Shown here: one piece after another, positions 11,169 to 50,192 of the stretch
Numbering within the stretch: position 1 is the first letter of the stretch
Layout of the letters: every line of letters starts with the position of its first letter
Source: Boletus sp. NGJ
Taxonomy: Eukaryota > Basidiomycota > Agaricomycetes > Boletales > Boletaceae
Direction: 5' to 3'
Assembly: GCA_019096195.1 (NCBI GenBank)
Contig: JAGTXK010000073.1
Location: 1,364,001 to 1,428,000 of the forward strand
Length of the DNA: 64,000 nt
Program-made: the position numbers and the translations under genes
Notes under the pieces: generated by a model
Database searches by the model: none
Told to the model about the DNA's origin: nothing
Seen by the model: only the letters and a program-made list of their open reading frames with translations

Positions 11169-11337
11169 GACGATTGTCTTCTACGAGCACACAATTCGAG
11201 TACTTTATATGAAACAACTACCCAAGCATTTACAGCCTGAAGATAGGAACGGAAACCAAACAGCACAACAACAAAGAAAAGAAAAGAAAAACAAGGCAAA
11301 TAGAACAGATCTACACTTTTGAAATCACTTTGTCGGA

Positions 11338-12729: not shown

Positions 12730-13066
12730 CTAAGTGGCGCAGAGTTCAATACCGGGGCCAGATAAAGGAGGGAAGCGACAACGGGAAGAAAGCGAGGACC
12801 AATGAGCGAAAGGAGCGCGAAGCGGAACACAGTCTAGACAAGCAAGTAGACAAGGAACCCAATTGCCGCGCCCCTGGATCTCGAAAGGTGGAGCAGATCG
12901 AAGTCCAAATGCCAGTTACCAGTGTAGCCCCCAGAGCACGACATAAGCTGCGAGCGGGCTGCCTAGGGTGTGGAACATCGACACGAACAGGGCACGAGGA
13001 CAGGAGACGACAGGAGCAGCAGAGCAGGAATGAAACAGCAAAAACAAGAGGATAAGACCTAAGCAC

Positions 13067-13270
13067 CTTGACCTGTCTGTCCCGAGTAGATTCCATCTTG
13101 GTACCGCGCGTTTCTTCGAAAGCCTTGCCAGTAGCCATTTTGGCAGCCCGCCCATCGTCGTCGAGTTGGACGTCGCCGTTCTCGATTTCGTGGGTGGTGG
13201 TGGGACCCATTGCTGTGTCAAAATCGTCGTCAGCCAGACTCCACTCAGTGGTGCGTGTACCAGGGCCCAT
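13067..13270 (-). CDS. Candidate first exon of the RRM protein gene
   Basis: ATG at 13270 opens 68 acidic, hydrophilic codons ending MESTRDRQVK in phase 0 with a donor GTGCTT at 13066. The phase fits the acceptor at 12731-12730, which would make a 337 bp intron, unusually long for this window. The alternative is that this is a separate small gene: the same frame stays open to 12746 and a neighbouring frame encodes a short hydrophobic peptide. RNA evidence is needed to decide. No family recognised. Confidence 0.4.
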
Positions 13271-13479
13271 TGCGGTAAGAGATGCAGGTGATGTTGCTCT
13301 GAGTTCTTCTTTATTTTTTATTCTCAATTTATTTTATTATTTTATATATTTATTCATGTATTACGTGGCTTGACTATGGTTCGTTTAAGTAAAGTTACAA
13401 GAAAACTACCCACAAGCCCTATGATAAACAAGACGAACAAGCAAAAAGTCCATTGTCCTTGACAACCAGTCCAGCACTC

Positions 13480-15412
13480 TCAAGCGAGAGTCCACAGTCC
13501 GCTAGCAACACCAATCACGACGAGCATAAGAACACTGCCGAACACTGTCCCATCAAGGGCAGCTGCGCCATTAGTATGAGGAGTGGAGGTGCTTGATCCC
13601 CCGCTAGAACTGCCAGTGGAGCCGGCAGGGAGCGTGGGGACAGAGGTGCCAGTGGCGCTAGCCAAGCAAGATGAAGCCGCCGCATTGACTGCACTGGTAC
13701 CCGATGGTGCGTGAGTGTTGACAGTGCCATTCCCACCAAAGCTGCAAGCTTGAGCATTGCTGCCGTTGTCGAGATACCACCGGGTCAGTACCCAAGAGAG
13801 CATAACCGCTACCGAAAATCATCTTAGTGATCCGACTCAAGACAAATGAAAAAATGACACGTACTTGGATCACACGCGGACACGGCGCCATACACGCCAG
13901 TGGTGCCGTTGGCCGCAATGGGATTGCAACTACTGCCTGCCTGCCCAAGCATACTGCAACCGTAATTAAGCAACGAACCGACAATTGCACTGTAGTTCGA
14001 GGTCGTTGGAGTGAACTGACAGCTCAAGTTGTTCTCCAAGCATGTGCAGGCGGCAAGATCGGGAGTAGGTGGCAAAGTGGTGGAAGCAAGCATAGTTGAG
14101 TTCTGCTGAGGGCAAGCCGGGTAACTCGTCGATCCAGCTGCGCTCTTGGAGGGTGAGTTAGGAGGTGAAGCCTGAGTGTACTGTGTCTTGAGGTTGTCGA
14201 AATTCTGGTTGACCGTAACTGTGCTACCATCAGCGGAAATCGAAACTATACCATAGCTGCCTTGCGCGCTCGCAGCGGGGAAGTAGGAGAAGGCAACACC
14301 ACCCGACCAGACAGGGGACATATCAGAGCTGAGAAGAGCTCCGACCTCACTCCAGTCAGTTGGTGGATTCGTGGGGCAACCGTACTCGCTAAAGTAGGCG
14401 GGGACATTGTAGGCTGAGTAAAGAGCCTCCGTTCCAGCATAAGATGCCTGGAAGGTCGAATTTCCGCACCATTGACTGCATGGATGTCAGACATCTCGGA
14501 CTGAGAGTAGAATTTGGTTGTGGTACGCACTAGTTGTTAAGCCCGTAAAGATCGATCGCAGTGGCACCAGAGTTAGTACTCGAGGGATCACAGGAGAGAT
14601 ATTCAGCAAGGGGAAGGATCCATGACGAATCGCCGTCGATGGCAGCATATCCAACAAGGGCAGACGACTTGATGGAGTTGCTGCAACAAAAATAGTTCGG
14701 TGAACTCCGGAACAACCTTGGCGCAATACTCACAGGTATGACTTGATGTCGCGGGCAGCTGCTTTCACAAACGTAGCTGCAGCTGTTCCGTTGGCTGCGA
14801 TGACGACTTCGTTTCCTACATTGTAGGCCAAAACGTTGTCATACTTTGAAAAGGCCTGGATAGTCTCGATGTATTGGTCTTGGAGGGCTGTTGTCCACGC
14901 TGGAGCAGCACGATCGATGGAGCCATTCACAGGCAAGGACAAGTCGATTCTACGACACGGTCAGGACTCTCCGCACGTGCGTGAGATTCCGACACCCGTT
15001 GCTTACATGGTATAAATTCCAGCATTGCTGAATAATCCCATACAAGTGTCGTGGTTCAGCGCTGGGTTGACACTGTAGGCACGAATAGTGTTGATGCCGA
15101 GTTGCTGGAGATAGGGCAAGTCACGCTGACAAGTAGTGCCATTGGACAAGGGGTCGATGTAGGTAGAGGGCTCAAGGAAAGGGTTGTTCGGGTCAGCAAC
15201 GACCTGACCTAGAGAGAGATATGAGGCGATATGCAATAGGCGAGGCACGGGATACGCGCACCTTGTTCCTGGTATGCGACACCTTTGATGTAGAATCTGT
15301 TACCATCGGCGGTATAGAGGTATCTACCCGCCCGAGTGACGGTCTGAATGGCTTGCACGCCGGAGAGAATGGCACCGGTAAAAATGAGGGAAGCTGCGAT
15401 GCGTGGACGCAT
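13480..15412 (-). CDS. GPI-anchored 1,3-beta-glucanosyltransferase, GH72 with X8 domain
   Basis: Cell-wall enzyme of the Gas1/Gel family that cuts and rejoins beta-1,3-glucan chains at the outer face of the plasma membrane. Six exons: 15412-15262, 15208-15007, 14949-14734, 14680-14531, 14475-13865 and 13808-13480, with 53-57 bp introns. A signal peptide (SLIFTGAILSGVQA) precedes the GH72 domain. The catalytic pair is visible as VGNEVV (acid/base Glu) and FSEYGC (nucleophile Glu). A Cys-rich X8/CBM43 module follows (ACTCLENNLSCQ; LLNYGCSMLG; QACSFGGNGT). The C-terminus is a Ser/Gly/Thr linker and a hydrophobic GPI signal (VLMLVVIGVASGLWTLA). X8 places it with the Gas1/Gas2-type branch. All splice phases fit; no lesion seen. 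Confidence 0.95.
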
Positions 15413-33023: not shown

Positions 33024-35015
33024 ATGCCGACGGAGGCACTCCTCAGACTCGTCGCCGTCTTCGTGTCGCTCCTGCTCATCCTCTTCACATTTTGGACGTA
33101 CCAGTATGTCAAACGACCTGCAAAGCTTCGCTCGGTCGCCATCATTGTCCTTGGCGACGTGGGGACGCAGTCCTCGTATGATGTATCATGCCGAGAGCTT
33201 TGCAAAGCTTGGGTTCAGCACATATCTCATCGGGTACCGAGGTGAGTGGCGAAGTCGTTCCTAGGACACGCAAACATACCGATGCCCCGTGCACTCCAAG
33301 AGTCTAAACCCGTTCCCTCCCTCACTTCTCTACCCCATGTCCGACTCTGTTACCTGTCTGAGCCACCCACTTTCCTCCACAACGTCCCCTTCATTATCGC
33401 TGCACCAGTAAAGATATTACATCAAGTGACATCCATTCTTTACACTCTTATGTTCACAATATCCTCTCCACCAGAGTTTATCATGGTCCAGGTATGACCT
33501 CTGGGTGGCGTGCAAGACAAGCTGCTAACTCATGTTCCAAGAACCCTCCAAGTATCCCTACCCTCGCTCTTGTCTCGCTAGTCGGACGCGTGAGAAGTAG
33601 TAGGATCATCATTGACTGGCATAATCTTGGACACAGCATACTAGCTCTGAAGCTGGGTACTTCCCATCCATTTGTGAAGATAGCAAAATGGTACAGACAT
33701 CAGAATCTATGTTTTTAACGTGCTGATGGAACTCAGGTTTGAAGCTACCTTTGGACGCTCTGCTTATGCACACTTATTCGTCACCAGAGCTATGCAGGAT
33801 CATCTGGTCTCTGACTGGGGATTGATGTGTGTCGTTTCCTGTTCGTCGCTCATAATTTAACATTTGAGTTAAGTGGCAAGAAAGCAGTCCTGCACGATCG
33901 CCCTCCGTCCCACTTCCATCGGTGTTCACCACCTGAAGTTCACGAGGTGCGGGACGTTCTAGCGTGACTGACATTCGTTCCTGACACCAAATCTCAGCTA
34001 TTCCTCCGCTTGGGACCTTCACTTACCAGTCCATTTTTAAAAGACTATCTGCCCTCCTCGAATACACCGTATACCACACAATTCACCACCACGACAGTCG
34101 CGTCGTCCCGGACCAGCCAATCGTCATCATATTCCGTCATGAACATGCCCGGATTGCGGGATGACAGAGTAGCTTTGCTAGTTAGCAGTACTTCATGGAC
34201 TCCTGATGAGGACTTTACGATCCTCTTGGATGCACTCAAGTTGTACGAGAAGCGGGCCTTGCAGGTCAACAAAGGTAGGTGCTTAGTGTGGTATTCTTTG
34301 AAATCTTGCCGACAAAAGTGCCAGAGAACCCCGGGAGATTGCCACGGATATGGATGGTGATTACTGGCAAAGGACCCCTCAAGGCTAAATACATGGCCGA
34401 TGTGAGCCGACTTCAAGGGGAGTGGTCGTATGTGCGGTGTTCTAGCTTGTGGCTTGAGGCAGAAGATTACCCTTTGTTGTTGGGTGAGGAGTCAGGTGTC
34501 TTTGATCTGTGTCAGCAAGTAGACCTGATGGTTGTCAGGATCCGCTGATTTGGGAATATGCTTACATTCAAGCTCTTCTGCGCTGGATTTACCGATGAAA
34601 GTGGTGGATATGTTTGGCTGCGGGCTCCCGGTCTGTGCGCTCGATTTTGCGTGGTAAGTGGCGCATGCCAAATCCTCAGATCTCGGTCATTTATTTATAT
34701 TTTCTCGGAAGTCTTCCGGAGCTTGTGAGAGACGGTGAGAACGGGCTGGTCTTCAAGAGCGCTGGGGAACTGGCAGGCCAAATAGAGGTTGGTAGCAAGC
34801 AATGATTTAGGAACTGCTGACCCACCGTTGAACAGATGCTACTCATGTCATTTCCAAACGGCGCTGCTTTAGGGAAATTGCGTTCCTCGCTCCAACTAGC
34901 ATCCCATCCGGTTCGGCACGGGGAAAGCGCTGATTGGGAATGGGGCACCTGGACGGAGAATTGGAATCGCGTTGTGAGACCTCTGGTGCTGACGGACGTT
35001 GAACGGTTCGAATAA
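33024..35015 (+). CDS. ALG1: Chitobiosyldiphosphodolichol beta-mannosyltransferase Alg1 (one apparent frameshift)
   Basis: Adds the first mannose to GlcNAc2-PP-dolichol on the cytosolic face of the ER, an essential step of N-glycosylation. An N-terminal membrane anchor ([19 protein letters not shown]) is followed by the GT33 domain: [10 protein letters not shown], then [99 protein letters not shown] and [14 protein letters not shown]. About nine short introns with matching phases; stop TAA at 35015. The conserved GDVG and RSPRM blocks are in different frames because of one extra G in the run GGGG at 33161-33164, and no intron can bridge them. Everything downstream is intact, so an assembly error or a very recent lesion is likely. 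Confidence 0.93.
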
Positions 35016-35284
35016 ACGAACTTGGTGATGATGATGACCCTTGTACCATGCACGTTTGCCGTGTCAGGCAGCACCGAAGGCCTCCGCTTAACCCACAGTT
35101 GTAAATTTAGAACTGACCTGATCCATGTGCTGTGTTTAATTTTTAACATCCTTGAGTCGAGGGTGTCACTTGACTTGTCCCCACGACTATTACGAACGTG
35201 CATGCGCTGACGCTTTTATGAGGCCCCATCCTCACCACGTCTGCCAGTGGCCCGCCCCGACCCAAGGCACGCCTTGCATCCCGA

Positions 35285-37437
35285 ATGCCACAATCGCGAA
35301 CTCCTCAAGAGGGCAGTTCCCTGAATCATGACGATTTCGACATCAAGGCAGAGTCAGAGGGCGTCACCCTCGACCAGCCCATGGCCGTGCCTATCACCAA
35401 AAGCGCACAAAGTAAGCGTTATCTGATAACCCTTCTTCCCCCGCAGTGATGTCCGTCTTCTCGTTGACAGACCGTCGGAAGCTTTACATCGTGGGCGGGG
35501 TCGTGGTCGGCGTCATCGCCGCCGTCGCTCTCGCGCTCGGGCTTGGACTAGGTTTGGGACTCAAAAAGAACAATACAAAATATGTCGCTACCAATTCGAC
35601 CTTCCTTCTTGACCCTACGTTCAATATCACGAGCACCCCCACCACTAGATATTACGAATGGGTCGTTGAAGAAATGACAGGTTCCCCCAACGGTTTCGAG
35701 CGAACGATGCTCGTCGTCAACGGTGAGTGTATATCCATGGAAATGGTGGGATATCTCTTTTGAAACGTTCATACAGGCCAGTTCCCAGGACCGTTGATCG
35801 AGGTCAACAGCGGTGACGAGCTCATCGTGAACGTCTTTAACAACCTGCCAAATGGCACTACTATTCATTGGCACGGCCAGCTCCAGAACGGAACTAATTA
35901 CATGGACGGCACCAGTGGCATCACTCAATGTCCCATTCCACCAGGCATGAACTTTAGTGAGCCCATTCCACCGTCCTTTGGCGTGTAAACAAGTGCTCAC
36001 GGCATTTTTCTCAGCTTACAACTTTACCATCAATCCTAACCAATACGGCACGTATTGGTGGCATGCACACGCCTCGACTCAGTATACGGACGGTATATAT
36101 GGTCCTCTCGTGATCCATTCTCCCAATGAGCCCATATACGGTTCGTACGACCATGACGCTCTCGTCATTCTGTCAGGTCGGTAGTTCGAGTGGCCATGTA
36201 TCACCCATAGAACTTACTGTGACGGATTATCAACTCCAGATTGGTATGACGTCATGTCAGCAGGATTGCTCACACAGTACCTCAGCAGTGCCGGGATCGA
36301 CGGATCCAACTACGGCGGTGTTAATCCAGGCGCGGAACCACCCCCAGACAGTGGTCTCATCAATGGCAGAATGACTGGCTCCACATTCAGTTTTGAGCCA
36401 AATTCTACTTATCGCCTCCGAATCATCAACATGGCTACGCTCACAGACTTCATGTTCAGCGTCGATGAACACGTTCTCGCAGTGGTAGAAGCCGACGGCA
36501 CAAGTCTCCAGCCCGCAAATGTCCACCGTGTTCCCATCTCCGTCGCGCAGCGATATTCCGCTATTCTCACTACAAACCAGACTTATGGTTCGTACAACGT
36601 TCGCGCAGAGATGCAGGAAATGTGCTACAAGCTCCCGAACCCCATCTTAAATACTATGGTACTTGGGACACTAACCTACGGAGCAACACCCACTACACCC
36701 AACTCTACGGACTGGTCCGATGCTTCCCCCGAAACCTGCTCAGACCTGAACACCACCATGATCGTACCTGTGATTCCGATGAATCCACCGAATAGCACGC
36801 AACCCGTCCTTGTCACGATGTCTTTCCAGCAAACCGTCCAATCAGGAGGAACGCAGACCCTTGCTTTTGTGAACAACACAAGTTGGCAGCCCCAGACCAC
36901 AGATCCGACTCTTCTTCAATTCTATCAGGCTGGTGCACAGACCAACTTCGACAACACGTCGCAGCTCGTGATCGTTAATGACGAGATTTCCGTCATCGAT
37001 CTGATCATCAACAATTATGATGACTCGAGTCACCCGTAGGTCACAGTCAGGTTTGGTTCTGCTAGCTGGTGTTGATGCCGTGACACAGGTTCCATCTTCA
37101 CGGTCATGTCTTTTGGGTCCTCGGGGAGGGTCAAGGGAATTATTTGGCGGGTTCCACCCCTCTCACTCTCACCAATCCCCCGCGCCGAGATACCCTTACT
37201 ATACCTGGTTTCGGTTATAGCGTCATCCGCTTTGTTGCTGACAACCCAGGCCTTTGGGCGTTCCATTGCCACATTGGATGGCACATGGCCGCCGGGCTTC
37301 TGATGCAATTCGCAAGCTTGCCGAGTAAAGTGCAGGAGTTCCAGATTCCCTCTTACTTGCAACAGCAATGCTCGGAACAGTCTGGTGGGGCAATACTGAA
37401 CAAGAGAAGCAGCAAGTGGTTGTCGTTGGACATGTAG
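35285..37437 (+). CDS. Laccase-like multicopper oxidase with N-terminal membrane anchor
   Basis: Predicted phenol-oxidising multicopper oxidase with three cupredoxin domains. The start exon 35285-35411 encodes an acidic cytosolic-type tail ([12 protein letters not shown]...). After intron 35412-35470 comes [20 protein letters not shown] plus a Leu/Gly stretch, a signal-anchor instead of a cleaved signal peptide. Copper motifs are all present: [25 protein letters not shown] and [17 protein letters not shown]. The residue after the last glycine is Leu, the axial position of the type-1 copper site. Each short intron (donors after VVNG, MNFT, LSD, SSHP) fits in phase. Many N-glycosylation sequons are present. 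The anchor suggests a cell-surface or vacuolar enzyme rather than a secreted lignin oxidase (inference). Its last 190 bp recur twice more in this window as gene fragments. Confidence 0.95.
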
Positions 37438-37786
37438 ATAGTTGGACTCGTAATACCCTCATGAGTATCTTAATCAGTATTCAGCATTCTATGGCGTGGA
37501 TCAACAGACCCAACTTGCTATAGTAGAATACATCGTGATTGAGATTGTATATAGATGGTTGAGCGTGATGGGAGGCGACGGTTGAACGCGCCTCGAGATC
37601 GAACTACAATGCCAGCACCTCTTTCACTGACCTCCACTTGTGTCCCTCCCAAGTCTTGTTGCTGCTGTCTGCCAGCCCGAGCTGCACCTTCCTTCTCGGA
37701 GTTTGCTCTGCAAGAACGTCTGCTTGACGAATCCCTCTGGAAGCCTTGTGACACGCACAACTGGCACGGGAGGATTGCGTGCTTCG
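37250..37786 (+). repeat. Copy A of the laccase/NmrA 3'-junction repeat
   Basis: About 540 bp nearly identical to 41299-41862 in direct orientation. It begins inside the laccase codons for [11 protein letters not shown] and ends after GTGCTTCG, where the two copies diverge sharply. Relative to copy B it keeps a 7 bp stretch (CAGCAAG) in the laccase end and lacks 32 bp in the NmrA part. Confidence 0.92.
37604..37786 (-). pseudogene. Truncated 3' end of an NmrA-like gene
   Basis: Antisense to the laccase tail. It reads EARNPPVPVV, LPEGFVKQTFLQSKLREG and then loses frame at a 32 bp deletion that removes the DNYIDKDVLENA-like segment seen at 41646-42727. The stop-codon position is conserved at 37606-37604. 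Nothing upstream of 37786 matches the NmrA gene, so only about 60 codons of the tail survive. Confidence 0.85.
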
Positions 37787-38055
37787 ATTACATGACTTTG
37801 AGTGTAAGATGCAGGATATATGTTCGAAGGGCGCGTTTCTATGAAACGGACACGTTTGTCTTCGCTCCAGATTTTTGAAACAGCCATGCCAGTGTAGTCC
37901 ATGTCCCTAATGTTATCTCAGCCCGACGTGGACATTTGCTCTTCAGAGCATCGCACCAAGCCAGCTGCTTGATCCATTTCACCTCGGGAGCTACTGTACT
38001 TCGTTTCTAATCCGACATACAGGTTTGGGCTCGTCGGACAAAACGTGGAGGGTAG

Positions 38056-38882
38056 GTTCCACCCATCACATTCGCGTGGTTAGCGCCCTCAGTAGTAACT
38101 AGCCTGACGGTCGTACGTCCAGCGGTACTCCGCAACCGTGCATAAAGAACTGATCACGTATTTGATGTCATACAGCAATGTCAGGTCGTCACTCCACTGC
38201 AGCTGTACTTTTCCTTCAGGTCCGCGTTCACAAACGCACAGGTCAGCCTTTTATCCCCTGTTCGAACTGGTAACAAGCTCGTGTAGATGGGTTGGGAAAC
38301 CGTGGCGGATGCTTACTACCTTCTTTCATTTTGGTCCACTCTCGCTAGATTTTATATTCCATCTTTTCTTCTTGTGAGTGTGTTCTGTATACTTTAGGTT
38401 GGGCTGGTCAACTGACGTGTTCACCGCCCAGTATGCGATATAGTCGTATGTTGGAGGAATCGTCGTTTGCGAATAGAAGGGCAGATTACCTCTGGTTGCT
38501 TTTGTTTTCATCGCTGATGCTTCTCGTGCGTCCGGACCTATGAGTCTTAGCATCATCAGCTAACCTAGTTCTTCAGGCACTGTCGCCATTAGTTAACCTT
38601 CCGTTTCTTTCGTCTTCTCTGGCCTTTGTTCCGATCTATATATGGTCCAGGCGACACCCATCCACGTCTATAGCCCTCTTTGGCATCTTCACGATATCTG
38701 CACCCTATCTGCCAATAGCACTCGTTGGGCTTTCGTGGATCATTACTGGCACGTGGAAGGCTGCCGCAGGTGACTTGATCGGATGTGCTGTGGGCCATAT
38801 CGGCTGGTTCTTGAGGGATGTGTGGGCCAGGGAGATGATCGGGGGGTATACTCCGCTCAGCGAAGCCCCAGAGATTCTGTGA
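38056..38882 (+). CDS. Derlin (Der1-like ER membrane protein), 5' end and two junctions unresolved
   Basis: Rhomboid-like pseudoprotease of ER-associated degradation. Exons with clear derlin text: 38056-38112 (PPITFAWLAPSVVTSLTV), 38176-38241 (QCQVVTPLQLYFSFRSAF...), 38287-38373 (WRMLTTFFHFGPLSLDFIF), 38432-38525 (MRYSRMLEESSFANRRADY) and 38577 onward (IYIWSRRHPSTSIALFGIF; APYLPIALVGLSW; GCAVGHIGWFLRDVW). Residues match human Derlin spacing over the first 30. I cannot find a start exon: the region just upstream is the ragged end of copy A. The splice from 38241 to 38287 changes phase. A family-like C-terminus RRLFGEV* sits at about 38929-38952, but one base out of phase with a donor at 38879. 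Either the assembly has small errors here or the gene is decaying. Confidence 0.82.
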
Positions 38883-40349
38883 GTCGTGTTTCTGATTGCT
38901 TTGTCGCGCTGGCGTGCTGACTTAAGCGTCTGTTCGGAGAGGTTTGACAACTGGCATCCGTGCATTGTACAACAGTACCGCAACACATCGATTCCTTTAC
39001 CAAAACAAGAGTCGTCATCGATTAAAATATTGGGAGCTACCTTGGTTGTCATCCCTCGTTATTGGGTTACAGTTTCGCCTGCTCGAACTACGCGCCAGCT
39101 ACTGGATCTCTCTTGCAAGTGTTAGAATGTCAAACTGATGCTAGCCTTGGAAGACTGCGTTCGGTCCCGTCATTATGAACGGTCACGAATGCCGTGCCGC
39201 ACTCTCGGTCTACACTTAATATCTCAGCCCCATCATTGTAGTTCGCTCCAAGTCAGCCGGTAAGTATGGCCTTGGTATATGTTCCCTACCCACCAACCAT
39301 GGCAACATGTTCTTCATGTCAATTTCGAGGCACCTCGTATGCTGTTCAAAGTTCGATATTACGACGACGACGAAATCTCGAGAACAACACTGCCGCACTC
39401 ATAACAACTCTACAGCTAATTAGTCAAGCTTATAGGTCTCTCTGGGTAGCCATCACCATCACCATCACGTTGCGAAAGGAGCAAAGGTCATCCGATAGAC
39501 GTCACATCAGTAAAATTACATGTGTCTTAATCTGGCTTATTTTAGCTAATTCTGCTTGTCAAATTGCAAAATATATTCAATACCATGATCATGTGTTCCA
39601 GAACATCAGAAACATCAACTACAATCAAATTATTTTACTTTTCAACAAAATGAAGCTTAGAATTTGTTTCTGTGTCAGATTTGGAAATGTTGTGCAAGTC
39701 AATAAGCTGAATAAGACAGATTAAGATGCATGTAATTTTACTGATGCAGACTTCATGAAGTTGACCCAGCCAGCTTACTTGACAAACCTTCCAAGACACA
39801 CTCCTGAGTCCTATGCTCTCTGTTAGTTCCACCTGAGCATCATTGGCAAGCCATCAACATGTTATTCATATCGACATGTCTGCACCTTCTTGATACAATC
39901 TCTGATCCATCTGTTCATTCTGTTTCCAAACTGAAATCACCTCAACTTTGTAATGGCGATGGTCTTGAGTCCTATACCATAGTTGTATTTTGTTTGTGCC
40001 ATTACCACTTTTTAGTGGTCTAGCTCCTGGTCTTGTATATGTACATCTTTGTGGAGTTGTAGTCCTGTTGTTCAATAGGCTTTACATGCCACCCTCATGA
40101 GCCTTACACCACTAGACTGATGGACATTAACAATGCTCTGTCATGTAGAAACTTGAATGTTAAAACCAATCACATGCTGGACAGCAACAGAGATAGTTGA
40201 GTTACAAGGTGATTCAGAGCTCAAAGAGACAACTTCTCCAATAAGGTTGTATAGTCTGGTGTCATATTCTTAGTGAAGCAGACAAAGGATGGAATGGGGC
40301 CATTCATACACTAAATTGCTTATGACAATGCTTGACTAAGTATAGTAAT
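38883..40349. other. AT-rich, repeat-bearing region
   Basis: Composition becomes clearly AT-richer from about 39400 to 40430 than the surrounding genes. It contains the MITE-like element at 39505-39746. Short frames (39266-39724, 39866-40075) give no domain, and the first runs through the element. Likely transposon-derived or heterochromatin-like sequence. Confidence 0.5.
39505..39746. mobile_element. MITE-like foldback element, 242 bp
   Basis: Terminal inverted repeats begin CATCAGTAAAATTACATG at 39505 and, on the other strand, at 39746. Over the first 37 bases the arms differ at only three positions, and weaker pairing continues inward. The loop is about 120-160 bp with no coding potential. 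The flanks share only CA on both sides, too short to prove a target duplication. No transposase in the window. Confidence 0.6.
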
Positions 40350-41235
40350 TTACTGGTGCAGCTCCTGATCCAAACCAACTTCCAAGTCATCTTTTGGTTG
40401 TCCTGAATGTCCATATGAGAGTTAATTAATTAATTGATGAAAATAAAACTTTGGGCTTACCAGGGAAGTCATTTACTGAACATTGAGATATCATTGCCTG
40501 TCTTGCCAAGTCTTGCACCCTCCTGGCACCAGCTGGAATGCACCATAGGAAGTGTGTTCCCCTTGTGAGACAATGAAGCTGTTGAGCTTCACCAAATCCA
40601 TTGAAAACAAGATTGGCAGCTTCCATGATCGCCAAGGTAAATACGTAGCACGATGCATTTACAGGGTTGTACCAAGGGATGAAGTCGGAGATCAACCTGA
40701 TTAGGTGTGATACACGTTGCAATGTGGGTGCCTGTTGAGGCTCCCATGCGAGGCGATGGAGGCGGTCCTGCTCGATTTGGATGGTGCCGAGATCGCCAAG
40801 GACCGTCAACGTGTCATTGGCTGTGCCCCGCAGGCCAAGTCTTGCAAGGAGTGTATTGCCAGTGATAGTGCGGGAAACCATGATGGCGACAGGGGTTTCA
40901 GTTGCAATCTGGCTTCGGCGGGGTCGAGTTACAAGCAGGACGAACTCGTGTTGAAAAGAAAATGCAGATCGCGCCTTGTAAAAGGATATCTCTGTGACAA
41001 CATAGTGTTGTCCAGGGTCCCCTTGTTGCACAGTGTGAAACCAGGCTCCTGGTGTCTGGGATGTGTGATTGGCAAGTACTGTTTGCATGGGAGATTCGGA
41101 AGTTTTCGCAGGCTTCTCGGTCTGAGAAACAAAGGAAAGCGGGTAGGGATATAAAAAAGAAAAACTGAATTCCATGATGATAATATTGTTGGAATACGTC
41201 GCAGGCAGTTTCGAAGCCCCTGCCGGAAATCCCAT
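40350..41235 (-). CDS. Orphan duplicated protein, copy 1 (possible papain-like fold)
   Basis: Exons 41235-40461 and 40402-40350 join in frame to 275 residues: donor GTAAGC, acceptor TTCAG, giving DFPGQPKDDLEVGLDQELHQ. The alternative start Met50 (MQTVLANHTSQ) may be the real one, since residues 1-49 look random. Recognisable text: GAWFHTVQQGDPGQHYVVTE, AFSFQHEFVLLVT, SRTITGNTLLARLGLRG and YNPVNASCYVFTLAIMEA. I recall similar orphan proteins in agaricomycetes. A conserved-looking His (96) in a beta-strand and a Cys (196) at the start of a helix recall permuted papain folds (LRAT/PPPDE-like), but that is inference. The second copy at 49298-50192 is also uninterrupted. Confidence 0.7.
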
Positions 41236-41298
41236 AGTGCTGCTGAGTCAGTTGCATTGCTGTTTTTGGTGGAATGCCCCTATCCCTCCAGAGCCCGG

Positions 41299-41862
41299 GC
41301 CTTTGGGCGTTCCATTGCCACATTGGATGGCACATGGCCGCCGGGCTTCTGATGCAATTCGCAAGCTTGCCGAGTAAAGTGCAGGAGTTCCAGATTCCCT
41401 CTTACTTGCAACAGCAATGTTCGGAACAGTCTGGTGGGGCAATACTGAACAAGAGAAGTGGTTGTCGTTGGACATGTAGATAGTTGGGCTCGTAATACCC
41501 TCATGAGTATCTTAATCAGTATTCAGCATTCTATGGCGTGGATCAACAGACCCAACTTGCTATAGTAGAATACATCGTGATTGAGATTGTATATAGATGG
41601 TTGAGCGTGATGGGAGGCGACGGTTGAACGCGCCTCGAGATCGAACTACAATGCCAGCACCTCTTTCACTGATCTCCACTTGTGTCCCTCCCAAGCCTTG
41701 TTGCCACTGTCTGCGTTTTCGAGAACATCCTTGTCGATGTAGTTGTCCCAGCCCGAGCTGCACCTTCCTTCTCGGAGTTTGCTCTGCAAGAACGTCTGCT
41801 TGACGAACCCCTCTGGAAGCTCTGTGACGTGCACAACCGGTACGGGAGGATTGCGTGCTTCG
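41299..41862 (+). repeat. Copy B of the laccase/NmrA 3'-junction repeat
   Basis: Direct repeat of 37250-37786. It starts abruptly within laccase coding sequence and runs into the complete NmrA-like gene. It lacks 7 bp of the laccase end (after AACAAGAGAAG) and has the 32 bp absent from copy A. Confidence 0.92.
41300..41479 (+). pseudogene. Laccase C-terminal fragment
   Basis: Encodes the type-1/3 copper segment [20 protein letters not shown] and the C-terminal [16 protein letters not shown] text, nearly identical to the intact laccase at 35285-37437. A 7 bp deletion shifts the last codons (ends RSGCRWTCR instead of SSKWLSLDM). Nothing 5' of 41299 is laccase, so it cannot be functional. Confidence 0.92.
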
Positions 41863-42727
41863 TAGAGAGCGCCGATGGAAGCGAGAGGTATTCGTTCGCC
41901 CTGGATGCGGAAGGTCACATTATGAAGGGATGAAGCAGGCAGTGTGGTGAGAACATGAGCGATAAATCCTGCAAAGGGCCGAGTTCGTGAGCGTGTTTCG
42001 TGGATGCAACGGGCACTTGCCTGAAACGTCATCCAAGGACGTGAAAGAAGAAGGGACGGCTTGTTCGCCCAGGAGATGGAACTTGCCCAGTTCGACGCCC
42101 GTCAACCACGGAATGAACTCCGCGAAAACACCGTTCTAATCCAGTACGGATGAGTCCCCCCAGTGCTTGAGGAATATGGATGACCGAGAACGCACGTAGA
42201 CACGCAGTACCGGGATTCCAAGGAACTTGACGTAGTCTGGTATGAATCAGGGTGTCATCCGATACTGAGACGTGAGTATTTCGCGGAGGCAAACTTACCG
42301 GCAAGCTGGGACTTGATCACAAGATGACCCTCCTTGCCGCCCTCGGTCGGCATCCCGTATTCCGAGGGTACAAACAACTTCACGCCCGCCTCCTTGGCTG
42401 CATCGGCGATGGGCCGTTGTGCTGGGATTGCACCATATGCCAGCGCAGAGATGACTACTTCCACATCGTGTTCCCGAAGGATGGACGTGAGCGTCTTCAC
42501 ATCAGCATAGTCCACCGTGGCTATTTTAACACCTTGGAGAAGGGGACTTTGAATTGAGCTGCTCCCAGGTTGCGCAAGCGCTACAACCGAGACTCCACGA
42601 TTTATCAGCGCCTGTTATAAACATTAAGTAACGTTTTTCTGTCACCGTATGAGATAGGACACCCCTGTACGATACGACCGCCGATGGTGGGACCTGCTCC
42701 AGCGACCGCGAACGAGGTGTAGGGCAT
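41646..42727 (-). CDS. NmrA-like / isoflavone-reductase-type NAD(P)-binding protein
   Basis: Atypical short-chain dehydrogenase of the NmrA group, either a redox-sensing regulator or a reductase of phenolic compounds. ATG at 42727 gives MPYTSFAVAGAGPTIGGRI, with the GXGXXIG dinucleotide-binding loop. A spliced ALINRGVSVVALAQPGSSS follows, then VVISALAYGAIPAQRPIADA, KLFVPSEYGMPTEGG, FAEFIPWLTGVELGKFHLLG, VPSSFTSLDDVSGFIAHVL and a C-terminus NYIDKDVLENADSGNK...KEVLAL. Introns restore frame at each step (for example donor GTACAG after GGRI and donor GTGCGT after LRVY). About 300 residues, normal. It is convergent with the laccase fragment; the same convergent pair, with opposite completeness, exists at 37 kb. 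Confidence 0.9.
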
Positions 42728-43275
42728 CGTGGATGGGAAGAGAGCGGTAGGGGGGTTACCTGCGTGCTGCTCACCCTTTGTAAGGTGGGAAGACGTTTAT
42801 TTCGCCCTCGGATAAAGTCGCGGTCTGGACCACTGGGTGGAAAAAGTTCGGATCGTTGGGCCCAAGGAGTTACACGGTGGAGGCGTGGCCGGGTCGACAC
42901 TGACATGACGGCCCAATACACCGCCCTAGAAACCTAGATCATATATACCTTGCCATGTGCGCGGTAGGGTGAATTCATGTTCCAATGACTATCTTTAGTG
43001 ACATTGCGGATGATGGACCGGTCGGAGGTATGGCGAAGAACAGGCTGTTGCTGCTGGCCAGTTTCCAGTGTGGCTTGTTATCACTTTACAACAGTATACC
43101 GAGATAAGTCCAGAACTTACGGTTACGGTGTTATTGTGAATTATCTCCATTGCACTAGCCTGATGGCCATCAAGTTCAATGGCTAGGCTATATGTCAGTG
43201 TGTGACCCAGGAGGGAAGCAAATTGTCTGAACTATAAAGTGTTGCCGAGAAGTTGATATCATACTGTACAACTTG
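42728..43275. promoter_or_regulatory. Divergent upstream region, NmrA-like / S28 peptidase
   Basis: 548 bp between divergent starts. A small open frame (42998-43186) has no features. No specific motif assigned. Confidence 0.35.
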
Positions 43276-45587
43276 ATGAGGCTCACCGTACCGTTCGCCT
43301 GCTTGTCCTCTCTCATCCTCGCTACACTTGCGAGTGCAATAATACCCACCAAGCGGGGGCCGACCAGTCCTCAGCATGTCAACTTTTGGAAACTAGAAGC
43401 TCGCGCGAGAGCATCGGAAGCTTCTCGTTCTGTCAAGGCCTCCCCTCTGGTTCTTCAGGACTCGACGACCGGATTCACGCTCGAACCGCCTGACACCCCA
43501 CAGCACGGACCTGACTACTCCAAATTCCCAGAACAATTCTTCGACCAGCCTGTTGACCATACTGACCTCTCGCAAGGAACATTCAAGCAACGTTATTGGA
43601 TTAACACCCGACACTATGTACCCGGTTCGGGTGGACCAGTCATCGTGTTGGATGGTGGTGAGACGAGTGGAGGGGATAGACTTCCGTTCTTGGATACGGG
43701 TATAGTGGAGATTTTGACAAATGCGACAGGCGGGGTCGGTGTTGTCCTCGAACATCGTTACTATGGTACGTACCATTCATGCTTGGTAGACGTCGTTTAA
43801 TGTATAACAGGAACGTCTATCCCCGTACCTGACTTCAGCACGGATAACTTGAGGTGAGGGTGCTCGACGAAACTATTCACGGCTTGACCAGATACACTGA
43901 CAACTACATGAATACACTAGATGGTTGAACAACGAACAGGCTGCCGCAGACTCTGCAAACTTTATGAGTCATGTCAAGTTTGAGGGCATAGACGAAGATT
44001 TGACATCACCCCAGACTCCTTGGATTTACTATGGTGTATGTAGCAATCTCATACAAATTTTGTCATGCCTGCAAAACTCAGGAATCGAATTCAAAAGGGT
44101 TCCTATGCCGGAGCTCGGGCGGCGCACATGAAAATCTTATACCCAGAGCTTGTCTTTGGAGCAATCGCCTCCAGCGGTAGGTGTTTATTGCACAGTGCTG
44201 TTCACACACTCAGCGTGATCCCAGGTGTAACCCATGCTACTCTTTCCAACTGGGAGTATTATGAAGTCATCCGCAAAGCTGCTGATCCTACGTGTTCTGC
44301 CCACATCGAGAACGCAATAACGACTATCGATTTTCTCCTCCAATTACCGTACCTTAAGGGTATCGTCAAGGCTTTGTTTGGACTCCAAGCGCTTGAGCAT
44401 GACGATGACTTTGCTTCTGTCCTCGAGGTTAGCTGACTCCCGACAGCCACGAATCGTCATGCTGACCGACGGAAAGGGACCGCTGGATGCGTGGCAATCT
44501 AAGGTCTGGGACCCGGCGGTGGGCAGCACACGTTTCGACGAGTTTTGTGAAACATTGGGCAAGCCAATTGGTGGTGCTACGCATGTTGCTGCCTTGCCAA
44601 TCGGACATGAAGACCGTCTCTTGACTTTATGGGACGATCAAAAGATCGATTTCTCTGTCTTGAATTACGCCGAGTGGATCAGGGAGGTGAGAGTAATTTC
44701 TATTCTCTTCCTTTGGGGGAATGAAATAACCCATTATATGATCAGAACCAAGTACAGCCCTGTCTTAAATATAACATGACAGTAGAGGAGGTCAGGACGA
44801 ACATGATCCTCTTTTCTTCATCGACTAAATGATTCAACTTGTGTGGTCGACTCCAGTGTTTCGGGACCTACAATGATACCAAGTATACCGACACATCCAT
44901 CTCTGAGGATTGGCGTTTATGGCAATTCCAAGTTTGCACCGAGTGGGGTTACTTCTCCGTACGTCTTTCGTTCCACGTTGCCGAGGAAGATGCTAAGATC
45001 ATGACAGACTGCTCCGCCTGACCCAGACTACCCTCGAATCGTATCCAAGCTTTTGACTATGGATTATGCCACGAAGATCTGCCGACAGGTAAGTCCTTGT
45101 GCTGTGGAGCATTGTTAGTTCTTGGCCGACCAACAATGTTCGTCGACTTTTCTAGGCGTATCCTGCTGGAAAATACTTCACAGTGCCAGAGCTACCGAAC
45201 ATTACTGCCGTGAACGTCCTGGGAGACTTTGCAATCGCCGCAGATAGGCTGGCTATCATAGATGGCGAAGGTACTGCACTACTTCCAATTCACTAACAGG
45301 TATCACTGACGTGTTGCAGTTGATCCTTGGAGACCCTGCACTCCACACAGCGAGTACGCAAACGATAGGGAAGACACTATACTCCAGCCATTCAAACTCA
45401 TCCCTGGTATGCATCCGTGTTCAGCCCTCTATTGACACGTGCTAAGACAGTAATGGTATCAGGCGCTGTTCATCACTACGACGAATATGGTCTTCGCAAC
45501 GTGAATGATGAGCCACCGGAAATACAACAGATTCACCGCGAGATGATCGAGTTTGTGCGCGAGTGGCTGAAGGATTTCAAGGCGTAG
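43276..45587 (+). CDS. Secreted serine peptidase, S28 family (prolyl/dipeptidyl-peptidase type)
   Basis: Secreted or vacuolar S28 serine carboxypeptidase-like enzyme that cleaves after proline or removes dipeptides. Start ATG at 43276 gives a clear signal peptide (MRLTVPFACLSSLILATLASA). Family text: YSKFPEQFFDQPVDH, GTFKQRYWINTRHYVPGSGG, VIVLDGGETSGGDRLPF, VGVVLEHRYYG, WLNNEQAAADSANF, then the nucleophile motif GGSYAGARAAH (Ser), joined by a phase-0 intron at about 44037-44097. The end carries the likely catalytic Asp in VDPWRPCTPHSE and His in PGAVHHYDEYGL, followed by EFVREWLKDFKA. At least nine short introns. TAG at 45587. No lesion noted, though the middle exons (44680-45060) were followed only in outline. 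Confidence 0.9.
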
Positions 45588-45778
45588 ACGGATTGTAGTT
45601 CATCCATTCGTACACACACCGTTCGTGACCAGAATGCTAGGCCGACTTGTTCCGTGAACACGACCGAATCCACTGCCATGGCTGTCGAGCCGTCAACTGA
45701 GCGTGAGTTTCTAACCGATCAGCTGGACTCGGAAACTGGCGTTCCCGAGATCCTCTCAGCTTCCGACGAGCATCTGCG

Positions 45779-46969
45779 ATGGCACAACGAACCTCATTTA
45801 CACTCGGATCCAGGCAATCCGAACTTGCAAAGATCCAAACCAACATCGTCATCCAAAAGCTCGCCGAAAAATTCCCCTCCTATGCGTTCGAAACGCGATT
45901 CCATGAAACTGAAGGGGACAAGAATCAATCCAAAGCGCTCTTTCTCCTCGGAGGTAAGGCATTGTGGACGAGGGGGCTCGAAGAGCTACTCGCCAACAAA
46001 CAGGTGGATATGCTCGTGCATAGTTTCAAGGACGTGCCGACGGAACTCCCGGGAGAATTTAAGATTGGAGCGATATTGGAGAGAGAGGAATGTGTGGATA
46101 GTTTGGTGGTGAAGGCCGGATCGCCTTACAAGATGCTCGAAGATTTGCCTGCTGGGAGCAGGATCGGCACAAGCAGCGTGCGGCGCGCAGCACAGGTCAA
46201 AAACTATCTCAGAAATCACCACAAGGAGCTGGACATGGTATTCAAAGATGTGGTAAGTAGGAACAGATGTTCGAGCGATATCACAAGACTGAATAGCGAG
46301 CGTGTACAGCGCGGAAACCTGTACGTTGCGTGGCTCGATCGCACTCTCGACACCGAGATTTATTACTGAGTTACAGTAACACCCGCCTAAAGAAACTGGA
46401 TGCGACTGGGGAGGGACGATGCGTTTGATGCGCTCATCCTTGCCAAGGCTGGACTTGTGCGTCTCGGCTGGTCTCATCGTGCCACAGAAGACTTGGTTCC
46501 TCCGGTCTTGTATCACGCTGTATCCCAGGGTGCGCTGGCAGTAGAGATTCGGACGGATGCGTCGAGCGAGCTGCTCGACTTGTGCGAGGCCCTGACGCAC
46601 CAACGAACCCAGTGGACATGTCTCGCCGAGCGTGCGATGTTGCGTACGTTGGAGGGTGGATGCAGCGTGCCTGTGGGTGTCAATACCAAGCTCACCCACG
46701 TGGTAGAGGGAGACGAAAGACTGAGGAGCGGGGAGCTGAAACTCGAGAGTGGTGTGCTGGAGATCACAGGTTGTGTCACGTCGCTCGACGGCGGGCGACA
46801 GTTTGTCAAGACGATTGGGGAGAGGGTTACGAGCACCGACGAGGCGGAAGCGCTGGGCAAGAGGCTTGGAGAGACGTTGCTGGACAGTGGTGCACGCGAG
46901 ATCTTGGAGGAGATCAAAGTCGACAGAACAACTCGGGCACGAGAAGCAGAAGAAAGCAAAACATCGTGA
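45779..46969 (+). CDS. HEM3: Hydroxymethylbilane synthase (porphobilinogen deaminase), one apparent frameshift
   Basis: Condenses four porphobilinogens to hydroxymethylbilane in heme synthesis. Exons: 45779-46252, an 11 nt microexon 46310-46320 (RGNL) and 46377-46969. Family text: FTLGSRQSELAKIQT, HSFKDVPTELP, IGTSSVRRAAQV, RGNLNTRLKKLD, DALILAKAGLVRLGW and GGCSVPVGV, whose Cys carries the dipyrromethane cofactor. The exon total is 1078 nt, one too many. KKLDATG and DDAFDALIL lie in different frames around GGGG at 46408-46411, and dropping one G gives a 358-residue product. An assembly error is the simplest reading. A 335-codon antisense frame here is a shadow. The true start at 45779 matches the usual N-terminus; a longer upstream frame does not. 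Confidence 0.94.
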
Positions 46970-47298
46970 TGATTTGTGCATAGCAAAGGACAATTAACAT
47001 CGAATTGAAAACTGTATTCCTGTAGTGTTCATTGTGCAGCATTTGGAGAATGAATGCACGACGTGAATGAATCACAAGAAAGTCGATCTGCCTCCCCACG
47101 AGCGCCTGATAATCCCTGGAAAACAATAACGAGCAACAGGTGACTCTAAGGCAGGGAGGAATTGACATTGAAGGTGTCCAACCGTACCCGACGGGGTTTA
47201 TGAGGGGCCGTGTAGTTTGTCCATGTTTGGCGCTGGAGGTCGATAAGCCCATATGCTCCCTGCTTTCTACTTGCAGCTTGCACAAGGCTAGTCGGGCC
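46970..47298. other. Intergenic region, HEM3 / E2
   Basis: 329 bp with no gene. Contains the 3' end of HEM3 and upstream sequence of the E2 gene. Confidence 0.5.
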
Positions 47299-48265
47299 AT
47301 GGCTTCAGTTTCGTCCCGGCGTCTGCGCAAGGAGCTCAGCGAGATCCACGTCGAAGGATGCCCTTGTGGTAACACTTTCTGCCTCAGTGTAGTTCATCTA
47401 TTCACTCCGCAGTCGCAGGCATCAAACTACTTAGCGCAGACGACTTTGAGACCTGGTTCTTCTCTATAGAAGTTCTGGGCGAAAGTTTATACCAGGCAAG
47501 TCCTCTCCATGCCCCATATTTATAACTCAGTTATTTCCCTTTAGGGGGAGGTCTTCAAGCTAATGTTCCGCTTTGACGCGAACTACCCCATATCCTCCCC
47601 AGCGGTCCAGTTTGTCGTGGACCAGAGCATCCAGGCGCCCATACACCCAGTACGTTGACCGTGTTCGGACCGTAATGGCGATGATATCTGACTCGATCTC
47701 AGCACGTGTACTCCAATGGGCATGTGAGTTTGGATCGCAAACCATCTCGTAGTTCTATTTTGACTCGTCGCAGATCTGCGCCTCTATCCTCGGGACAGAA
47801 TGGTCCCCAGTTTTGAGTGTATCCGCCGTTTGTGTCACAGTACAGAGCATGTTGGCGTCGTGCAAGGTAACCTCTACCACGACCAGTCACCGATTTGTTC
47901 TCATACACTCTCATAGGCAAAGGAACGGTAAGTCCTAACCCCCGGAGTAAACTCTTCATACCGAAAATCGCGTGTGTTTTCAAGGCCCGTAGACAACGAT
48001 CGATACGTTCGGACTGCGCCTGACAACCCGAAGAAGGTATGTCGCAATCCAAACCCAGGCCCTTGCTGCTGTTAACCTTGTTGTTGGCAGACACGCTTCC
48101 AATACCACGGTAAGGCCATTCGAAATTACCCGACTCGCGGACGTGTCAGCTGATTGCATTTGTCTCTTCCACGATCTGTTTATGCTAGATGACACGTACG
48201 TTCTCACCACATTTTACGACGACGAACGAGATGGTTTGACTCATGGTTTACATTACAGGGTATAA
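47299..48265 (+). CDS. UBE2W-like ubiquitin-conjugating enzyme
   Basis: E2 of the UBE2W/UBC16 type, which in animals ubiquitinates protein N-termini. ATG at 47299 in GGGCCATGG context gives MASVSSRRLRKELSEIHVEG. Spliced order: DDFETWFFSIEVLGESLYQ, GEVFKLMFRFDANYPISSP, IQAPIHP, HVYSNGH, ICASILGTEWSPVLSVSAV (catalytic Cys in HICASIL), MLASCKAKERPVDNDRYVRT and FQYHDDTV. UBE2W hallmarks are the HPHVYSNGH block and the HDDT end. Structure is unusual: intron 47496-47544 is GC-AG, HVYSNGH is a 21 nt microexon (47703-47723) and the last exon is 7 nt (48259-48265). Length about 150 residues, as expected. Confidence 0.94.
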
Positions 48266-48775
48266 ATTACGGATCCTTTAGCCATTGAACGTTTTTGCAT
48301 GTACGAACACAGGTGTCTGTATCATTACCCCAGGTAGCAAGATGACAGGAAAGTATAATATTGAACAACATGCATGCGATGTAAGTTACGCCGCTTGGTG
48401 GACATGCATAAATATGGAGCTCGCTGTTATCGGCGACCGCATGTCTCCCGGAAGATCCATCGTGACCACGTGTGGACAAGCGAGAACCTTGGATCCTGAA
48501 GTGAAGATGAGAATGGAATAAATAGACCCAGAGTGGAACGTGCGACATGTCGGCCATATCTCCCGAGGACGCGTCAATATTCGATGCTCTTCTTGTGATC
48601 ATATCCCTACCCCATTCGCGTAACTGAGGCAAATATCGGGTGAGCCATCACTGACAGGAAGCAAACGTTCGGTACGAATCGCTTGAGTCGTTAGTTTTCC
48701 TCGAGCTATTCGGGGAATTGAACGGACGGGAAAGGTTTACTCGGAGGCTACGACCGTGCTACAGCTAGCTTCGGC
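48266..48775. other. Intergenic region before copy C
   Basis: 510 bp with no supported gene. Antisense frames (48267-48632, 48386-48577) show no family features. The right edge is the breakpoint of the inverted repeat at 48776. Confidence 0.45.
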
Positions 48776-48879
48776 GGGACAACTACATCGACAAGGATGT
48801 TCTCGAAAACGCAGACAGCGACAACAAGGCTTGGGAGGGACACAGGTGGAGATCAGTGAAAGAGGTGCTGGCATTGTAG
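48776..48879 (+). pseudogene. NmrA-like C-terminal fragment
   Basis: Encodes only the last about 34 codons (DNYIDKDVLENADSDNKAWE ... KEVLAL) with the stop codon at 48877-48879. Sequence left of 48776 is unrelated. Confidence 0.85.
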
Positions 48880-49045
48880 TTCGATCTCGAGGCGCGTTCA
48901 ACCGTCGCCTCCCATCACGCTCAGCCATCTATATACGATCTCAATCACGATGTATTCTACTATAGCAAGTTGGGTCTGTTGATCCACGCCATAGAATGCT
49001 GAATACTGATTAAGATACTCATGAGGGTATTACGAGTCCAACTAT

Positions 49046-49234
49046 CTACATGTCCAACGACAACCACTTGCTGCTTCTCAGTATTGCCCCACCGGACTGT
49101 TCCGAACATTGCTGTTGCAAGTAAGAGGGAATCTGGAACTCCTGCACTTTACTCGGCAATGCTTGCGAATTGTCAGAAAATCAGAAGCCCGGCGGCCATG
49201 TGCCATCCAATGTGGCAATGGAACGCCCAAAGGC
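49046..49234 (-). pseudogene. Laccase C-terminal fragment, copy C
   Basis: Antisense-strand copy of the laccase tail. It is interrupted by a short insertion just after the [13 protein letters not shown] codons (near 49175-49195) and lacks 6 bp before the end. It keeps the CAGCAAG stretch missing from copy B. Not functional. Confidence 0.88.
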
Positions 49235-49297
49235 CCGGGCTCTGGAGGGATAGGGGCATTCCACCAAAAACAGCAATGCAACTGACTCAGCAGCACT

Positions 49298-50192
49298 ATG
49301 GGATTTCCGGCAGGGGCTTCGAAACTGCCTGCGACGTATTCCAACAATATTATCATCATGGAATTCAGTTTTTCTTTTTTATATCCCTACCCGCTTTCCT
49401 TTGTTTCTCAGACCGAGAAGCCTGCGAAAACTTCCGAATCTCGCATGCAAACAGTACTCGCCAATCACACATCCCAGACACCAGGAGCCTGGTTTCACAC
49501 TGTGCAACAAGGGGACCCTGGACAACACTATGTTGTCACAGAGATATCCTTTTACAAGGCGCGATCTGCATTTTCTTTTCAACACGAGTTCGTCCTGCTT
49601 GTAACTCGACCCCGCCGAAGCCAGATTGCAACTGAAACCCCTGTCGCCATCATGGTTTCCCGCACCATCACTGGCAATACACTCCTTGCAAGACTTGGCC
49701 TGCGGGGCACAGCCAATGACACGTTGACGGTCCTTGGCGATCTCGGCACCATCCAAATCGAGCAGGACCGCCTCCATCGCCTCGCATGGGAGCCTCAACA
49801 GGCACCCACATTGCAACGTGTATCACACCTAATCAGGTTGATCTCCGACTTCATCCCTTGGTACAACCCTGTAAATGCATCGTGCTACGTATTTACCTTG
49901 GCGATCATGGAAGCTGCCAATCTTGTTTTCAATGGATTTGGTGAAGCTCAACAGCTCCATTGTCTCACAAGGGGAACACACTTCCTGTGGTGCATTCCAG
50001 CTGGTGCCAGGAGGGCACAAGACTTGGCAAGACAGGCAATGTTGTTTCAACGTTCAGTAAGTGACTTCCCTGGTAAGCCCAAAGTTTTATTTCCATCAAT
50101 TAATTAATTAACTCTCATATGGACATTCAGGACAACCAGAAGATGACTTGGAAGTTGGTTTGGATCAGGAGCCACACAGCCCACACCAGTAA
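49298..50192 (+). CDS. Orphan duplicated protein, copy 2 (possible papain-like fold)
   Basis: Exons 49298-50072 and 50131-50192 join to 278 residues with the same intron position and phase as the copy at 40350-41235. Differences are few: R for P at residue 49, RAQ for RVQ, LFQRSVSD for ISQCSVND, and three extra residues near the end (QEPHSPHQ). Both copies keep an open frame, the His (FQHEFVLL) and the Cys (NASCYVFT). Upstream sequence is the laccase fragment in antisense, so the promoter must lie in or beyond that junction. Function unknown; see the first copy for the fold hypothesis. Confidence 0.7.

What the first reader, a model, noticed from the sequence alone, without database searches (positions are those of the whole stretch)
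35285..42727. Laccase/NmrA convergent pair duplicated, then split: one locus kept the laccase, the other kept NmrA
Copy A (37250-37786) and copy B (41299-41862) are near-identical direct repeats of the 3'-to-3' junction of a laccase and an NmrA-like gene. At A the laccase is whole and NmrA is a tail; at B the NmrA gene is whole and the laccase is a tail. The copies carry different small deletions (7 bp in B, 32 bp in A), so both have decayed separately. A derlin gene, a MITE and an orphan gene now lie between them. This looks like segmental duplication with reciprocal loss, or an insertion that duplicated about 550 bp of target.
Basis: partly seen in the sequence, partly recalled or inferred. 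Interest (0 to 1): 0.72.

Follow-up and report, generated by a model that had tools for sequence, protein, structure and literature searches.

The report
Gene junction copied three times locally
In this fungal chromosome the spot where two neighbouring genes end was copied by faulty DNA repair, leaving two same-facing copies around a 3.5 kb block and a third, flipped copy 7 kb away; this looks like a tidy example of a known kind of genome scar, not a new system.

Summary
The repeat is real but under-described. Copies A (37245-37786) and B (41294-41862) of the laccase/NmrA 3'-3' junction are direct repeats (13 differences in 530 aligned bases). The laccase beside A and the NmrA gene beside B are whole; the other gene at each is a tail. 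C carries the O|laccase junction, so it comes from a B-like state; both outer sides of B look ancestral, which speaks against a simple staggered-break inversion. The 'derlin gene' between A and B is disabled (start lost, 10 bp deletion, last splice acceptor deleted); an intact-looking relative lies on C50/C35. O is a small unnamed gene family, 3 open and 2 decayed copies, dN 0.25 and dS 0.76 between paralogues. Best reading: break repair put a 3.5 kb cassette into the junction, duplicating about 540-570 bp of target, and an inverted O-tail copy was made 7 kb downstream. Tandem duplication plus deletions is the main rival. No relatives or reads were available.

The parts
35285..37437 (+). Whole laccase-type multicopper oxidase, 621 aa, 6 exons, N-terminal hydrophobic stretch; stop TAG 37435-37437
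   Evidence: spliced reading (the automatic model had a spurious last intron); Pfam Cu-oxidase_3, Cu-oxidase, Cu-oxidase_2; solved laccases, best E 5.7e-79
37245..37786 (+). Copy A of the junction: last 188 nt of the laccase, intergenic stretch, NmrA 3' end (34 bp deleted, cut off at 37786)
37787..41293 (+). Cassette between A and B (3507 bp): 127 bp without a match elsewhere, derlin pseudogene, rearranged block, MITE, O gene
   Evidence: own-genome DNA search, comparison with L033/L034
37914..39101 (+). Derlin-like copy, disabled: ATG to GTG, 10 bp deletion in exon 1, last splice acceptor deleted; 90% identical to the C50/C35 copy
39505..39746 (.). MITE-like element, 242 bp, terminal inverted repeats of about 37-47 bp
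40350..41175 (-). O gene, B copy (main exon 41175-40461, second exon 40402-40350; start codon chosen by likeness to the C81:1.58 Mb copy)
41294..41862 (+). Copy B of the junction: laccase tail (7 bp deleted), intergenic stretch, running on into the whole NmrA gene
41646..42727 (-). Whole NmrA-like gene, 282 aa, 5 exons
   Evidence: spliced reading, Pfam NmrA E 1.3e-11
48767..49239 (-). Copy C of the junction, inverted: laccase tail, intergenic stretch and only about 100 bp of the NmrA 3' end
48767..50172 (-). Whole inverted unit shared with B (40361-41759): O gene plus junction
   Evidence: 1408 aligned, 24 mismatches, 11 gap positions; with another aligner (28 of 1398 differ)
49358..50192 (+). 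O gene, C copy, open frame (main exon 49358-50072, second exon 50131-50192)

Best explanation
This is a local scar of DNA break repair in a fungal chromosome. A laccase and an NmrA-like gene once ended tail to tail. A break with long overhangs (or an equivalent replication restart) at that junction was repaired by joining in a 3.5 kb cassette (derlin copy, rearranged block, O gene; the MITE may have come before or after), with both ends filled in, so that about 540-570 bp of target now flank the cassette as direct repeats. The laccase stayed whole on the left and the NmrA gene on the right, so neither gene was lost. Later, or in the same repair, the O gene with the adjoining laccase/NmrA tail was copied again, inverted, into the space between an E2 gene and a GET3-like gene 7 kb downstream. 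Shown: the three copies, their order and orientation, the two junctions peculiar to A and B, and that C carries the O|laccase junction. Inferred: that one laccase-NmrA junction was ancestral, that the cassette was inserted, that C came from B, and that overhang fill-in or template switching did it.
For: Laccase-to-tail continuity at A and tail-to-NmrA continuity at B each belong to a whole gene, so both are taken as ancestral and only A|37787 and 41293|B as new. A search with copy A finds 3 of 3 places here, and no second laccase-NmrA pair was found; the next NmrA match is 39-42% identical on C10. The cassette's parts (derlin, block, O) also lie together, rearranged, on C50/C35, so they do not belong to the laccase-NmrA pair. 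C holds O plus tail with the O|laccase junction. Beyond the O stop codon B's flank matches the flank of the C50 O copy (64% over 135 columns, E 8e-8) while C's flank matches neither C50 nor the C81:1.58 Mb copy. Searching the rest of the window with cassette and tail gave 8 matches, best E 0.76.
Against: No outgroup: insertion cannot be told from tandem duplication plus deletions by parsimony alone. No close donor of the cassette is in the assembly (derlin 90%, block 68-80%, O 68-74%), so it moved without leaving a copy, or the donor is not assembled. C is not a plain copy of today's B: at the end of the O coding sequence C is about 9 bp longer than B and the C50 copy and there resembles the C81:1.58 Mb copy in length, so B lost or C gained bases since. 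The flank match that marks B as template is weak (64%, 29 gap positions). Junctions show at most about 3 bp of possible microhomology, read by eye. Whether one or two events occurred is open.
Confidence: 0.5

Rival explanations
1. Tandem duplication of a segment running from the cassette through the laccase into NmrA, followed by deletion of the upstream cassette and of the 5' part of the second laccase.
For: Gives the same A|cassette and O|tail junctions; tandem duplications over 1 kb are reported in rice (passages of PMC7971508).
Against: Needs a duplication plus two deletions. No remnant of the cassette or tail was found elsewhere in the window, and none of the laccase's 5' part (self-comparison); clean deletions would leave none.
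Confidence: 0.25
2. Staggered-break inversion of the 7 kb segment between B and C, which leaves inverted duplicates at its ends.
For: B and C are 1.4 kb inverted repeats flanking 41760-48766; such duplicates are the mark of that mechanism in Drosophila (passages of PMC4965816).
Against: B's junctions on both sides look ancestral (whole NmrA on one side; O flank shared with C50 on the other), so the segment need not have flipped. It also does not explain A.
Confidence: 0.07
3. Insertion of a transposable element that captured laccase and NmrA tails (for example a Helitron-like gene-capturing element).
For: O-plus-tail occurs twice; a multiplied MITE lies in the cassette.
Against: Copy A finds only these 3 places, while 3 further O loci (5 listed places, two of them C50/C35 pairs) are not among them. 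In 34000-44000 the only inverted repeat of 25 nt or more is the MITE's, and no shared 7-12 base word lies close to both ends of C. A and B lie outside the cassette. Helitron end signals were not searched for.
Confidence: 0.05
4. Assembly artefact (haplotype mis-join).
For: The assembly does hold redundant sequence: C50 and C35 are identical over 9702 bases compared.
Against: The copies differ pairwise by 2.5-4.0% with distinct indels, the tails are cut off inside genes, and copy A finds no further contig with this locus.
Confidence: 0.08

Closest known systems
Insertions and duplications from repair of adjacent nicks or staggered breaks (Vaughn and Bennetzen 2014, not held; known here from passages and the reference list of PMC7971508)
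   Same: Direct repeats of up to kilobases made by repair without a transposon
   Different: Here 3.5 kb of other DNA lies between the repeats, and an inverted third copy exists
Staggered-break inversions of Drosophila (PMC4965816, passages incl. parts of the abstract)
   Same: Duplicates of a few hundred bases to 8 kb with partial genes at breakpoints, a functional copy remaining
   Different: The segment between B and C shows no sign of inversion; two of the three copies are direct
Templated insertions by template switching, MMBIR (PMC8421209 and PMC11724301, starts of abstracts in a search listing only)
   Same: Copies of nearby DNA, also inverted, joined at little homology (those of PMC11724301 mostly 5-34 bp)
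   Different: Here kilobase-sized; no experiment or population data; possible junction homology about 3 bp at most

Membership tests
Insertion with target duplication by break repair | One target segment present in direct orientation on both sides of inserted DNA | tested here: met
   A and B flank 37787-41293
Insertion with target duplication by break repair | Empty site (laccase-NmrA without cassette) in a relative | not testable with these tools
   no relatives held
Insertion with target duplication by break repair | Inserted DNA foreign to the target | tested here: inconclusive
   diverged relatives of the cassette on C50/C35 (68-90%), no close donor
Staggered-break inversion | Inverted duplicates flanking a segment | tested here: met
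   B/C
Staggered-break inversion | One junction of each duplicate is new, as a flipped segment requires | tested here: not met
   both sides of B look ancestral; the O-side evidence is a 64% match, E 8e-8
Transposable element insertion | Further copies of the whole unit in the genome | tested here: not met
   copy A finds only A, B and C
Transposable element insertion | Terminal repeats and short target duplication | tested here: inconclusive
   none seen for the cassette (inverted repeats of 25 nt or more) or around C (words of 7-12 bases); element-specific end signals not searched
Segmental duplication with reciprocal loss | Traces of the lost parts of either copy | tested here: not met
   no remnants in the window

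The most novel reading that the evidence does not exclude
A single replication-based repair event in a fungus made all three copies at once (cassette insertion with target duplication, then an inverted re-copy of its own product), and the outcome was kept because it doubled the O gene, an unnamed family under constraint, while a redundant derlin copy was lost.
Probability: 0.2. Interest if true: 0.45.

Novelty: new member of a known kind. Interest (0 to 1): 0.25.

Why it matters
It shows base by base how a rearrangement can cut through two genes and yet leave one whole copy of each, with the debris (truncated tails, an inverted 1.4 kb repeat) still in place. The inverted B/C pair flanks NmrA, an S28 peptidase, porphobilinogen deaminase and an E2 gene, and the A/B pair flanks the cassette; both pairs could serve further inversion or excision, which makes simple predictions for other strains. 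It also draws attention to an unnamed, constrained gene family (O).

Tried and rejected
Staggered inversion of the B-C segment: rejected as a full account because both sides of B look ancestral. Transposon capture: judged unlikely, tails occur only here. Remnants of a larger duplication in the window: 8 short matches at E<=10, best E 0.76. A target duplication at the ends of C: a script looked for shared words of 7-12 bases between 67 bases left and 88 bases right of C and printed none. Structure of O from a 3-row alignment: mean pLDDT 35.2, not usable, so no fold search was made. No Pfam match up to E 1 for two O proteins and no PDB match up to E 1 for the O alignment. The three-way pattern of the 19 gap-free variable columns (4 B=C, 2 A=C, 13 C alone, some of the 13 beside indels or at C's end) cannot test the order of events without an outgroup; the order rests on the shared O|laccase junction and on flanks. 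A paper search for laccase, nmra-like, basidiomycete, gene duplication, convergent gave 37 papers holding 4 of the 5 terms; the 8 listed hold no 'nmra-like'. The automatic gene finder gave a wrong laccase end and wrong NmrA versions; both genes were re-spliced at named splice sites. One search printed the L033/L034 match under the wrong heading, so that for a moment the window seemed to match C50; cleared this (window 8000-14000 has one place in the genome).

Full report
What is there. The window is G000:C81:1364001-1428000 of a 32.8 Mb, 141-contig genome for which no relatives are held. Self-comparison at E<=1e-5 gives five matches: the A/B direct repeat in two pieces (37245-37672 / 41294-41714; 37672-37786 / 41748-41862), A against an inverted copy C (49239-48811), B against C over a longer unit (40361-41759 / 50172-48767; 1408 aligned, 24 mismatches, 11 gap positions), and the terminal repeats of a MITE. 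A search of the assembly with copy A finds 3 places, all here.

The genes. The laccase (35285-37437, 6 exons, 621 aa) has all three multicopper-oxidase domains and matches solved laccases (best E 5.7e-79); its HCHIGWH motif lies inside the repeat. The NmrA gene (42727-41646, 282 aa) reads through five exons, one intron being GC-AG, and matches Pfam NmrA (E 1.3e-11). The repeat holds the last 188 nt of the laccase, the intergenic stretch and the 3' end of NmrA. No other laccase-NmrA pair was found: the nearest NmrA matches are 39-42% identical on C10, and the other laccase-like matches lie mostly on C74, with others on C129, C22, C101 and C102 (counts there are lower bounds).

The copies have changed separately: A lost 34 bp in the NmrA tail, B lost 7 bp in the laccase tail, C lost 6 bp at nearly the same spot and gained a few bases. 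Differences: A-B 13 of 530, A-C 17 of 427, B-C 15 of 459 over the junction and 28 of 1398 over the whole B/C unit; a few of those involving C sit beside indels or at its end and are alignment effects. C lacks B's 7 bp deletion, so on the reading that C came from B that deletion is younger than C.

The cassette, 37787-41293. Its first 127 bases match nothing else at the tool's sensitivity; 37914-39101 is a derlin copy 90% identical to C50:166182-167390 and C35:104311-105519. Against that relative, which reads open over 205 aa with a Der1 domain (E 6e-39), the window copy has lost its ATG, carries a 10 bp frameshifting deletion in exon 1 and lacks the last splice acceptor. Over 202 comparable codons differences fall 8, 5 and 22 on positions 1, 2 and 3, so constraint acted on at least one of the two branches; the comparison cannot say on which, and a recent loss in the window is an inference. 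A further Der1 match lies on C61. Parts of 39102-40230 match C50 in the opposite orientation to the derlin, so the block was rearranged between the two loci. The MITE (39505-39746) has 36 other listed places, four of them being two C50/C35 pairs.

The O gene. The 'orphan' belongs to a family: B and C copies (97% identical proteins), a third open copy at C81:1580340-1581068 (63%), and two decayed places on C50, each repeated on C35. Between C and the third copy dN is 0.25 and dS 0.76; between B and C dN 0.012 and dS 0.033, from 12 differences. It has no Pfam match up to E 1, no PDB match and no usable model.

Order of events. Laccase to tail at A and tail to NmrA at B are each part of a whole gene, so they are taken as ancestral; A|cassette and O|tail are new. 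C carries the O|tail junction and so comes from a B-like arrangement. Beyond the O stop codon B's flank matches that of the C50 O copy (64% of 135 columns, 29 gap positions, E 8e-8), whereas C's flank matches neither C50 nor the C81:1.58 Mb copy; B is therefore the likelier template. Against this, C's O coding end is about 9 bp longer than that of B and of C50 and there resembles the C81:1.58 Mb copy in length, so C is not a plain copy of today's B. On this order a simple staggered inversion, in which one junction of B would be new, does not fit. The simplest account is insertion of the cassette into the junction with duplication of about 540-570 bp of target, then (or together) an inverted copy of O plus tail 7 kb away between the E2 gene and the GET3-like gene (the E2 model is partial). 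A tandem duplication with two later deletions remains possible; it might leave remnants, and none were found in the window.

Comparison. Repair duplications of this size and inverted duplicates at breakpoints are known (passages read in PMC7971508, and PMC4965816). PMC7971508 reports that in rice tandem duplications fall to about 5% of events by 200 bp but occur up to 4.9 kb. Nothing here requires a new mechanism. The combination of a cassette, a long target duplication and an inverted re-copy is a well-preserved instance, hence new member of a known kind.

Limits.

Noticed in passing
window 40350-41175 (-), 49358-50192 (+); L035:4218-5069 (-): An unnamed gene family (O) with 3 open and 2 decayed copies, under constraint between paralogues (dN 0.25, dS 0.76), without a Pfam or PDB match up to E 1.
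   Followed up: partly
G000:C50 and C35 (L033, L034): C50 and C35 are identical over 9702 bases in opposite orientation, and matches between C50:150206 and 235919 keep the same offset to C35, which suggests a long unmerged overlap of contigs; a MITE at C35:207069 has no listed partner on C50 in that capped list, so the extent is unknown.
   Followed up: partly
window 39505-39746: A 242 bp MITE; 17 of its 36 other listed places are 96-99% identical, which suggests recent activity. In 15 loci and the window a script found both ends in 3 loci and the window, and 3 of these 4 have flanks that look like a 2 bp target duplication.
   Followed up: partly
window 37914-39101: A disabled derlin copy; an open relative lies on C50/C35 and a further Der1 match on C61.
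   Followed up: yes
L033:4609-5052 (-): Beside the C50 derlin an open frame begins like a histone H3 tail (MARIKQTTGLSTGG; likeness recalled, not searched) and then departs from it.
   Followed up: no
G000:C74:700-157658: 16 of the 32 exon-level laccase matches lie within about 160 kb on C74, apparently a laccase cluster.
   Followed up: no
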